A stretch of 64,000 bases of DNA from Owenia fusiformis (taxonomy: Eukaryota; Annelida; Polychaeta; Sabellida; Oweniidae): positions 30,333,248-30,397,247 of the forward strand of contig CAIIXF020000003.1 of assembly GCA_903813345.2 (NCBI GenBank). The letters are read 5' to 3'. How positions within the stretch are numbered: the stretch's first letter is position 1; each line of letters starts with the position of its first letter. Below are positions 28,301 through 56,325 of the stretch, piece after piece. The notes under the pieces were generated by a model, which was not told the DNA's origin, ran no database searches, and saw only the letters and a list, made by a program, of their open reading frames with translations. Made by a program: the position numbers and the translations under genes.

Positions 28301-31300
28301 TAATGTCAATGTTCATTCATTTAAGTAATTCTGTATGCCAAATGATATAGAACCTAGTTTGACTGATAACTAGAAGACAAAATTAGATAGAAATTGGCTG
28401 AATGAATGCAATTGTTAGGAACACTGTAAAATATGCCAAAGATAACACATAAAATAAGCCTAAGATAACACATAAAATAAGTCTTAGAATTGAACTTAGA
28501 ATAAGCCAATGATTATAACTCTAATAAGCCTTAGATTGCACTTAGAATAAGCTTTGGATTGCATCTAGAATAAACCTACAATACAATTGTCTTTCCATCA
28601 TATCCCTCAAATAATTCTTCTTGGGGTGTGATCATCTCCTCTTGTTGGAAATGCTGAACTCTAGATGTGCCACAACTAGAGAAGTAAAGAGATGCTTGAT
28701 CGTATATGTTAGTGGATCTACTGAAAATTCCTTCACTTTTGTACCCGCTTCCAACATTTTCTGACACCTTCATTGAGCTAGTAGATGGCATGGAAACTCC
28801 TGCATCATTCACTGAGGTCAGTGGACGACGCTGTTTCAACTGGGGCTCTGAAGAAATGACATTTCCGATCATTTTGCCTTGTACCACACTGCTAGTACCT
28901 TCAAATGCTTCCACATCAGCATAGGGGAATGTGCTTGGAACACAGGGAATACCATATTCATCTACTTTCTCATCTTCTTCTGGTATCTTGTAACCAGGTC
29001 GCTTTGAGTCGATATCTACATCTGGGATTTTGTAGCCCATCGTGAGTGATTCAATTTGGGGGACTTTGTATCCTAGAGGCGGAGAGTCAGATCTTGGCAT
29101 AACGTAATCGCTTTGAATCGGAACACGTGCACCTCTTTTAACATTTCCGATTTTCCCATTTAGCCAGTACGTCTCCATTGGGCCTTTACCCTTCAAAGTA
29201 GATCAATACATACTAACATGCTACATTTAATGAATTAAAACAAATATTCTCTATTCATTTTCTCCATTATCCTTTGAAAAACATTCAAATGCAAATAATT
29301 CTTGCATTATATTTGGAAAAATCAATAAGCAATCAAATCTAACTAATCAAAATAATAATACAAACCTTTAAGTCAATTGTGCCTCTGTATTCCGTCAAAA
29401 ATCCACCAATTTTGTCTAGCGTTTGCTTGCAATTAATGCTCACATGGATCTTTAAAGCTGAAAGTATAAATTATTGAAAAGCAGGTGATTGTCCACTCAA
29501 ATGCAAACCCTTTTATATACACATGCATTGACGTTGACAGATCTTAAAATCAAATATAGAACACAATATAGGTACTGTATACCACTTTTTGCGCCCAAGC
29601 TGTCACAGTTCACATAATTGATAAATTCAAAATTAGAGGGTCAAAAATTTTTGGGTTCATCTTGTATGCAATTCAATGATTGTTACTTTATGATGGCTGG
29701 CAGGTAATTTAGGATAAAATATATATTGAATAATTTACTTACGAAGTCCACTTGATTCCATTCTTGATGCTGTATTGACAGTGTCACCAAACAGACAATA
29801 CCTTGGCATAGCACTACCAACCACACCTGCCGCACAGGGTCCTACAACAAAAATAAACAGACTACCTCTGCAGAGCAACTACCAACCACACTTGCTGTAC
29901 AGGGTCCTGCAAAAAAATATTACAGACAACACCTTGGTAGGGCATAACCACACCTGCCACACGGTCCTGCAACAAAAAATTAATAAACAGTACAACTCTA
30001 CATAGCAACTACCAACCACACCTGCTGTAAGGGTCCTGAAACCAAATCTGAACAGATAATACCTTGGCATAGGATGAAGTCATGAAGTACTTCAACTTCA
30101 TATGTTTCATAATAATATGGTCTATAAATAAATTATTTAACTGCACACTTTATGTGCAGGACCGTAAGCAAAATCTTGTTTTTTTTGCTGTTCCATATTG
30201 GAATAGTCCATAATAAACTGTTTTGTACTGACTACCTTTAGTTTAATTCATAGTTTATAAACATATATTTATGTACAGGTGCCAACAGAGAAAATACCAA
30301 AATGTGTTAAAAACAAAGCAAGAAACTAAACATTTATGGGTACAACAAATCATAAGGAAAGCAAACCCCAAATATCCCAAATTATGATCTAACATAAAAC
30401 CCAAAGATTTACTAAAACCAAACTATTTTGGTTTACTTTCCTTAACATTTATCAATTTAAAAAATTGTTTCAAGACAGCATGCATATTTGTAAGCATGGT
30501 GGGATTTTGTCATGCGTCAAGTGGTGCAAATGTGGATTCCGGCTATCATCCTAATTCTGAAATACCTGTTTAGATAACATGAAAGAAAATGGCATTTTTA
30601 TGAAATGTTAAGACTTATTTTAAATTGTAAATAATTCATCTTGAAATTGAATGGCATTAATCTGTTTCTTAGATTAGATACTCATCAGACCTGTTCATTT
30701 GGAGGAGAACCTATAGATTTGAATAGAATTTTTTTGTCAAGGAATGGATTCTACTCTCAAGCTGGAATTCCATCATTTGAAACAGATAACTGAAGATGGA
30801 CTGATAATTTTAAAAGATTCCATGGTTGAATAAATGACAATGAGCACAAAATGACATCTTAGATGAACTTTGAACTTCTGTAGATAATTGAGATAGAATG
30901 TTTCAAAGGGATCATCATGTATGAGACCTTCCTGGAAAAATTCCAGAGGGGTACAAGTGACAATCTTGGTCCAAAAAATGGCCAAAATCACTAAAAAGTG
31001 CTCAGAATGGTGAAAAACTGCATGATTTTAAAAGATTTTTTGCCCAGGGGCAAACGAGCTACAGTCCCGAACAGGTTCCCTAAAGCATGCACATTCATTC
31101 AACACATTTCCCCACATTCATTGGTCAATATCAGAAGAAGGTTATAGCCATTACCTTCTGATACTGACTTTCCTTCTCTTTCTAAATCACTGTTCCACAA
31201 CTAGTTATTTTGACGGAACATTAATGTAACAAAATGGATGAACTTTCTGGTTACAAGTTTTTGTTTTCTCTATTTAAACTTACATATAAGTCAAGTTGCA

Positions 31301-56325: not shown

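What the first reader, a model, noticed from the sequence alone, without database searches (positions are those of the whole stretch)
29842..55790. Tandem duplications repeatedly span exon-intron junctions in two genes
Five independent sites show a short tandem duplication containing part of an exon plus its splice site: CLC exon V (about 18 donors), CLC exon I (2-3 donors), CLC exon J (2-3 acceptors), cyclase exon 4 (4 acceptors) and cyclase exon 3 (2 donors). Random minisatellite birth would rarely hit junctions of about 29 small exons this often in 26 kb. Either a mechanism prone to duplicating junctions acts here, or such arrays are tolerated because several equivalent splice sites yield the same mRNA.
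Basis: partly seen in the sequence, partly recalled or inferred. Interest (0 to 1): 0.85.

Follow-up and report, generated by a model that had tools for sequence, protein, structure and literature searches.

The report
Tandem-duplicated splice sites: known "mirages"
Two animal genes carry tandemly copied exon-intron boundaries, one with 18 nearly identical splice donors; such "mirages" are already known from lancelets, and in this repeat-rich DNA their number is not clearly above chance.

Summary
The repeats are real. In a CLC-7-type transporter gene and a guanylyl cyclase gene nested in its intron, four exon-intron junctions lie inside tandem duplications: CLC donor V (86 bp x 18), donor I (2 copies plus a fragment; copy 2 split by a 202-bp element), acceptor J (55 bp, 3 copies) and cyclase acceptor c4 (about 65 bp, 4 copies). 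The fifth site, two donors 36 nt apart in exon c3, repeats a peptide motif but is not a recognisable DNA repeat.

The frequency argument is not established. TRF arrays fill 15.4% of the span. Whole-array placement predicts 4.4 junction hits (3 seen, 4 with exon I). Single-unit placement predicts 0.95-1.5, P 0.02-0.19 by unit definition, so a modest excess stays possible.

"Equivalent sites, same mRNA" fails for direct use: each repeat-derived decoy gives a frameshift or stop; only c3 gives an in-frame variant.

These are "mirages", described in amphioxus Adh3, troponin C, globin and PGBD5 genes, where splicing was reported or inferred to be undisturbed. One further point: all 18 V copies keep a branch-point consensus, a 3' splice site and a donor that would make 73-77-nt introns around a 9-nt in-frame exon. 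Use is untested.

The parts
54169..54252 (+). CLC exon V (84 nt); its native donor, after 54252, is copy 1 of the array
   Evidence: Splice model gives an open frame that aligns to the CLC-7-type chain 7jm6 through the V/W joint without a gap
54203..55760 (+). 86-bp x 18 array: last 50 nt of exon V + donor + 36 nt of intron per unit; 17 decoy donors at 54338, 54424, 54510, 54596, 54678, 54764, 54850, 54932, 55018, 55104, 55190, 55276, 55362, 55448, 55534, 55620, 55706
   Evidence: TRF score 2710, 94% matches; donor list and scores
43129..43239 (+). CLC exon I with its native donor
43275..43570 (+). Second copy of the exon I end + donor (decoy donor after 43541), split by an inserted element; third partial copy at about 43566-43603
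   Evidence: 84 of 88 aligned bases identical with the element left out; decoy donor score 7.0 equals native 7.0
43311..43512 (+). 202-bp inserted element inside copy 2, flanked by CTGGCC (43305-43310 and 43513-43518)
   Evidence: five further hits of the element in the window at score 35 or more, 71-85% identical
43877..43931 (+). CLC exon J with its native acceptor
43760..43899 (+). 55-bp x 2.6 array: intron end + acceptor + exon J start; decoy acceptors at 43822 and 43785
   Evidence: TRF; acceptor scores 7.6 and 10.1 against native 9.9
29743..29841 (-). Cyclase exon c4 with its native acceptor (first base 29841)
29789..30067 (-). 65/130-bp array: intron end + acceptor + c4 start; decoy acceptors at 29906, 29966, 30035
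   Evidence: TRF; scores 8.9, 11.7, 6.4 against native 8.3
32213..32248 (-). 36-nt in-frame exon c3 extension between two donors (last exon bases 32249 and 32213), encoding [12 protein letters not shown] after MRVGLHSG
   Evidence: 12-residue insertion against NPR1
19724..56325 (+). CLC-7-type H+/Cl- exchanger gene, exons A-X as far as seen (5' end upstream not located)
   Evidence: Pfam Voltage_CLC 4.5e-79 and CBS 5.5e-14 (model with exon Q); best PDB match 7jm6, E 1.3e-236, then CLC-7 chains (model with exon R)
28576..34705 (-). NIT-domain guanylyl cyclase gene, six coding exons, nested in the CLC intron between exons B and C
   Evidence: Pfam NIT, HNOBA and Guanylate_cyc; closest solved catalytic domain NPR1; end of stop codon

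Best explanation
These are mirage-type minisatellites. Tandem duplications of about 50-100 bp arise in many places in this minisatellite-rich region and some fall across an exon-intron junction. A copy added on the intron side does not alter the coding copy that stays joined to the unique part of the exon: the first copy for donors (V, I), the last for acceptors (J, c4). The protein is therefore preserved as long as the spliceosome uses that exon-anchored copy, and the other copies drift, expand and are homogenised as intron passengers. Shown: the anatomy, the intact reading frame through the anchored copies, the near-native strength of most decoys, junction hits within what whole-array chance gives, and the order 'duplication, then element insertion' at exon I. 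Inferred: that births are not aimed at junctions, that the anchored copy is the one mainly used (probably because the pair with the exon's other splice site defines a short exon), and that the decoys are largely silent, as reported for amphioxus mirages.
For: Spliced models are open throughout and align to the CLC-7-type chain and to NPR1 across the affected junctions using the anchored copies. No excess of junction hits by random position, footprint or rotation. Each repeat-derived decoy gives a frameshift or premature stop when used directly: V, 17 of 17 with a stop after 41 aa; J extensions 55 and 92 nt, first stop after 54 and 37 aa counted from the decoy acceptor; c4 65, 125 and 194 nt, with stops; I 302 nt, stop after 63 aa. 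Decoy V copies do not look coding-constrained: changes against copy 1 in the exon part are 11 synonymous and 14 non-synonymous, and variable columns are 10 of 50 in the exon part against 12 of 36 in the intron part, Fisher P 0.21. Recent local expansion: the 254-bp three-copy block 54425-54678 and the next one match at 252 of 254. Published mirages in several amphioxus genes have the same anatomy and were reported or suggested not to disturb splicing.
Against: No RNA data: which copies are used is unknown. Many decoys are as strong as or stronger than the native sites, while unrelated donor-like sites scoring 9 or more occur at only 0.07 per kb (about one in 15184 non-array bases), so silence of 15 decoys at 9.5 needs an active explanation. 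Single-unit nulls lean against pure chance: P 0.19 to 0.058 without exon I and 0.05 to 0.018 with it over the CLC span, and down to 0.005 in the finding's own span. The organism is unknown and no genome is held, so no genome-wide count or second haplotype could be examined; collapse or expansion of arrays by assembly cannot be ruled out.
Confidence: 0.67

Rival explanations
1. A duplication process biased to exon-intron junctions acts in this genome (for example through AG/GT or pyrimidine-tract motifs, or R-loops at splice sites).
For: Single-unit nulls: 1.53 expected with best-scoring periods (P 0.19; 0.05 with exon I); 0.95 with smallest periods (P 0.058; 0.018 with exon I as an event); 0.023 and 0.005 within the finding's own span. 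Two more arrays lie 10 and 16 bp from splice sites (22358 and 49339).
Against: Footprint, random-position and rotation nulls give no excess; with two units per array P is 0.41, or 0.17 with exon I. The finding's span was chosen after the fact; interrupted arrays like exon I's were not counted elsewhere; and the smallest-period test enters V with a 17-bp sub-repeat instead of its 86-bp unit, which lowers the expectation.
Confidence: 0.15
2. The arrays are functional regulators: decoy sites divert part of the transcripts to stop-containing forms removed by nonsense-mediated decay, setting the level of the transporter and the cyclase, with copy number as a dial.
For: Most decoys are of near-native strength and each is unproductive.
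Against: No sign of constraint on the V decoy copies; I saw no common sequence plan among the four arrays (not tested); published mirages were reported silent. No conservation test was possible.
Confidence: 0.1
3. Assembly artefact: some copies, mainly of the 86-bp array, are inflated or misplaced.
For: A near-identical 254-bp block duplication (252 of 254). The amphioxus globin paper reports that one mirage appears aberrantly assembled in the draft genome.
Against: Three of the four cases are diverged (76-88% for J and c4) or carry an inserted element (I), which assembly error does not create.
Confidence: 0.08

Closest known systems
'Mirages' in amphioxus genes (Adh3, globins BflGb6 and BflGb9, troponin C, PGBD5): minisatellite-like tandem duplications of exon-intron boundaries (PMC3087553, section 16 and passages read; PMC3902484, one passage read; Canestro 2002 seen only in a reference list)
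   Same: Both 5' and 3' junctions duplicated, units of 10 to about 160 bp, decoy AG/GT signals kept in many copies, concerted evolution inside clusters.
   Different: Copy number at V (18) is larger than the 6 and 3 given for the two BflGb6 haplotypes (Adh3 copy numbers not seen); four junctions in two genes of one 26-kb stretch; one copy split by a mobile element; organism not identified, so whether this is a lancelet is open; splicing not tested.
Dual-specific AGGT splice sites in the human polyubiquitin gene UBC (PMC10809524, abstract and section 7 read)
   Same: A tandem array in which each unit carries AGGT sites that could serve splicing inside the array without changing frame.
   Different: UBC units are coding, 228 nt, with RT-PCR support; here the acceptor (CCAG|GT) and donor (CAG|GTAAAT) are two sites 9 nt apart, and in the 18 copies each scores poorly in its other role.
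Intron gain by tandem duplication across an exon-intron boundary, potato RdRp gene (PMC4974935, abstract and introduction read), and tandem repeats at exon-intron boundaries in human segmental duplications (PMC2812944, passages read)
   Same: A tandem duplication crossing a junction supplies splice signals.
   Different: Those report new introns with transcript support; none is shown here.

Membership tests
Mirage (junction-spanning minisatellite) | Tandem repeat unit spans an exon-intron boundary | tested here: met
   V, I, J and c4; c3 does not meet it at DNA level
Mirage (junction-spanning minisatellite) | Copies carry AG/GT splice signals | tested here: met
   18 of 18 V donors; repeat-derived acceptors at J (2) and c4 (3), donor at I (1)
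Mirage (junction-spanning minisatellite) | Concerted evolution or turnover inside the cluster | tested here: met
   Seen only for V: two three-copy blocks identical at 252 of 254 bases
Mirage (junction-spanning minisatellite) | Regular splicing not disturbed | not testable with these tools
   No RNA data; only open frames through the anchored copies
Mirage (junction-spanning minisatellite) | Length polymorphism between haplotypes | not testable with these tools
   One assembly only; no genome held
Mirage (junction-spanning minisatellite) | Found in cephalochordates (the cases called mirages in the papers read) | not testable with these tools
   Organism not given; window G+C is 0.333
Dual-specific splice-site array (UBC type) | One AGGT site is good both as 5' and as 3' splice site | tested here: not met
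   In the 18 copies CCAG|GT scores 7.4-8.7 as acceptor but 2.9-3.6 as donor and CAG|GTAAAT scores 9.5 as donor but 3.0 or less as acceptor. Exception outside the 18 copies: one site just past the array, 55813/55814, scores 8.1 as donor and 6.6 as acceptor
Dual-specific splice-site array (UBC type) | RNA evidence of splicing between array units | not testable with these tools
   No RNA data

The most novel reading that the evidence does not exclude
The exon V array is a frame-safe splicing ladder. Each of its 17 spacers is a complete potential mini-intron (15 of 77 nt, 2 of 73 nt): donor CAG|GTA, branch-point consensus CTGAC or CTTAC 29 nt before a CCAG acceptor, then a 9-nt in-frame exon GT(T/G)ACACAG (Val-Thr-Gln) and the next donor. 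Spliced unit by unit, any number of copies adds only VTQ tripeptides near the second CBS domain of the transporter, so the many donors would be tolerated because successive splicing keeps the frame. It would be a mirage caught in the act of becoming introns, as proposed but not shown for amphioxus globins.
Probability: 0.07. Interest if true: 0.8.

Novelty: new member of a known kind. Interest (0 to 1): 0.4.

Why it matters
It shows that several mirage-type junction duplications can sit in one locus without a targeting mechanism being required by the numbers so far. It also offers a natural splice-site competition experiment: 18 donors of almost identical sequence in cis, of which only the first yields the normal reading frame directly. 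If the mini-intron reading held, it would show a step in intron birth from minisatellites. If the organism is not a lancelet, it extends structures of this name beyond the group in which the papers I read describe them.

Tried and rejected
'Same mRNA from any copy': rejected for direct use. c3 as a tandem duplication: not seen at DNA level; at protein level the pair [18 protein letters not shown] has the second-highest score of 348194 nine-residue self-pairs, and random placement of the same number of changes rarely keeps such similarity (P 0.00015), so an ancient duplication kept for its protein, or an optional 12-residue insertion, is likely; which donor is used is unknown. A scan of viral contigs with a 26-base piece of the V unit found nothing; Rfam found nothing in the window at gathering thresholds. 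Prokaryote genome collections were not scanned because the locus looks animal. Structure prediction was not used: the proteins are spliced and no relatives were at hand for an alignment. A splicing paper looked at for duplicated sites (PMC8724738, passages) did not bear on the question. Paper searches. I make no claim that the exact case is absent from print.

Statistical caveats: the position-weight splice scores are trained on 25 donors and 27 acceptors of these same two genes, excluding the donors of V, I and c3 and the acceptors of J and c4, and are rough. One search missed exon I's junction because its scan allows no gap near the site; two searches found it. In some searches the alternative c3 donor was counted as a 58th site. 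The position, footprint and rotation nulls count grown arrays, V's own 1.56 kb included, which raises the chance expectation.

Full report
Gene context. The window looks like animal DNA; no genome is held for it and its G+C is 0.333. Reading the sequence and joining exons by script gave two open coding models. On the + strand, 24 exons A-X (19724 to 56325, 5' end not located) encode a CLC exchanger: Pfam Voltage_CLC at 4.5e-79 and CBS at 5.5e-14 (model with exon Q), best solved relative a chloride channel protein, 7jm6, at 1.3e-236, then CLC-7 chains (model with exon R). On the - strand, six exons (34705 down to 28576) encode a guanylyl cyclase with NIT, HNOBA and cyclase domains, closest solved catalytic domain NPR1. 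The cyclase gene lies inside the 15.8-kb CLC intron B-C. Together the models have 57 splice sites.

The observation. TRF finds arrays over three junctions: 54203-55760 (86 bp x 18) at donor V, 43760-43899 (55 bp x 2.6) at acceptor J, 29789-30067 (65/130 bp) at acceptor c4. A fourth, at donor I, is not in the TRF list; copy 2 is split at 43311-43512 by a 202-bp element flanked by CTGGCC on both sides. With the element left out, copy 2 matches exon I and its intron start at 84 of 88 aligned bases. So the duplication came first and the element landed in it later. The element has five more hits in the window at score 35 or more. Gapped self-comparison finds these 4 of 58 tested sites and no others. 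Against NPR1 the longer form carries a 12-residue insertion.

The anchored copies are the coding ones. In the alignment to 7jm6 the V/W joint has no gap; next to the I/J joint the query is two residues shorter than the chain. The c3/c4 joint continues without a gap after the insertion.

Chance. Arrays cover 12.5% of the window and 15.4% of the CLC span. Several nulls were run. (i) Gapped copies spanning a position: 16.1% of 1500 random positions against 4 of 58 sites. (ii) Ungapped anchored copies: 14.8% of 1500 random positions at score 12 or more against 4 of 58 (at score 10: 15.5% against 6 of 58); exonic random positions (215) only 2.3%; against non-exonic positions alone (16.9%) the sites are fewer than expected, P 0.023. 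(iii) Random placement of the 17 arrays of the CLC span: by footprint 4.43 contain a junction, seen 3, P 0.88; by two units 2.29, P 0.41; by one unit of the best-scoring period 1.53, P 0.19, or 0.05 if exon I is added to the observed side only; by one unit of the smallest period 0.95, P 0.058, or 1.08 and P 0.018 with exon I entered as an event. In the finding's own span, chosen after the fact, the one-unit values are 0.12 and 0.027, and 0.023 and 0.005 with smallest periods. (iv) Rotating all 57 junctions against 15 duplication events: 4.5 expected, 3 seen, P 0.93. The tests differ because arrays that have grown occupy more room than the unit that was born.

What the copies can do. Splice scores built from the other sites of these genes show that decoys are strong: V, 15 of 17 decoys score 9.5 like the native donor (the other two 8.1 and 6.6); J decoys 7.6 and 10.1 against 9.9; c4 decoys 8.9, 11.7 and 6.4 against 8.3; I decoy 7.0 against 7.0. 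Donor-like sites of score 9 or more occur at 0.07 per kb outside arrays, so the V decoys are not ordinary background. Acceptor-like sites are commoner (0.59 per kb at 9 or more, 1.45 at 7 or more), and a strong one that is not repeat-derived lies at 43734 before J (9.2). Used directly, the repeat-derived decoys are unproductive: V decoys read into a stop after 41 aa; J extensions 55 and 92 nt shift the frame and meet stops; c4 extensions 65, 125 and 194 nt and the I extension 302 nt are not multiples of three and meet stops; three weak AG sites (2.6-4.0) in the c4 array whose extensions are multiples of three also meet stops. Only c3's alternative keeps an open frame. 'Several equivalent sites yield the same mRNA' is therefore not the reason for tolerance in the direct sense.

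Evolution of the V array. Copies differ little: mean pairwise diversity 0.053 in the exon part and 0.074 in the intron part, variable columns 10 of 50 and 12 of 36, Fisher P 0.21. Against copy 1 the exon part shows 11 synonymous and 14 non-synonymous changes. Two adjacent three-copy blocks match at 252 of 254 bases. This fits recent expansion of passenger copies and gives no sign of coding constraint.

A possible twist. Nine bases before each V donor lies a CCAG acceptor scoring 7.4-8.7, with CTGAC (once CTTAC) 29 nt upstream, in 18 of 18 copies. Each spacer is thus a potential intron of 77 nt (15 of 17) or 73 nt (2 of 17), separated by nine bases that encode Val-Thr-Gln in every copy. Among the 28 exons with a donor, two have an acceptor-like AG of score 7 or more in their last 50 nt: V, in frame and with a branch-point consensus, and K, out of frame and without one. 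Successive splicing inside the array would keep the frame. This matches the published idea that a mirage turns into introns when an acceptor is already present in the original exon, and is related to the dual-specific AGGT arrays of UBC, although in the 18 copies neither site is good in both roles. The signals may be there only because exon V's code happens to contain them and the array is young. I give this reading 7%.

Comparison. [quoted passage not shown] I read section 16 and passages of PMC3087553 and one passage of PMC3902484; the original Adh3 paper is not held. In potato a duplication across a boundary made a new intron (PMC4974935, abstract and introduction); in human segmental duplications repeats at boundaries can form introns (PMC2812944, passages). 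Experiments on duplicated splice sites from the 1980s and 1990s, in which site proximity and exon context decide the winner, are recalled and come from no call.

Verdict. A real and well-marked set of junction duplications, a new member of a known kind, at a frequency that a minisatellite-rich locus can plausibly give by chance. Interest is moderate, carried by the 18-donor array and its possible mini-introns.

Noticed in passing
49355-49565 and 50685-50814: CLC exons Q and R look like mutually exclusive duplicate exons: both start in phase 2 and end in phase 0, and both encode the start of the first CBS domain (REIMAEP...GYPVV and SEIMNSP...GYPVI). R aligns well to the CLC-7-type chain 7jm6; Q was not compared with it.
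   Followed up: partly
28576-34705 within 22349-38181: A NIT-domain guanylyl cyclase gene is nested, on the opposite strand, in one intron of the CLC-7-type gene.
   Followed up: partly
22358-22966 and 48928-49339: Two more minisatellites start 10 bp after donor B and end 16 bp before acceptor Q, without containing the junction.
   Followed up: partly
43311-43512, 45492-45635, 30936-31050, 46043-46148, 10295-10467, 9293-9495: A short dispersed element with inverted-repeat-like ends, several diverged copies; one sits in the exon I duplication.
   Followed up: partly
about 41400-42500: Long inverted repeats (alignment score 184 over about 235 bp) around a reading-frame fragment that resembles a mariner-type transposase (label from memory).
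   Followed up: no
13066-15840 and 15925-16791: A long reading frame like a non-LTR retrotransposon polyprotein (endonuclease and reverse transcriptase, label from memory) next to a transposase-like gene.
   Followed up: no
28576-29190 (-): The cyclase C-terminal tail carries an imperfect peptide repeat (LGYKVP, MGYKIP, PGYKIP), among the best self-matches of the protein.
   Followed up: no
55813-55814: A CAG|GTATAT site just past the 86-bp array scores 8.1 as donor and 6.6 as acceptor, the one candidate there for a dual-specific splice site.
   Followed up: no
56448-57278: A diverged 48/97-bp minisatellite lies just downstream of the CLC stop codon, probably in the 3' UTR.
   Followed up: no
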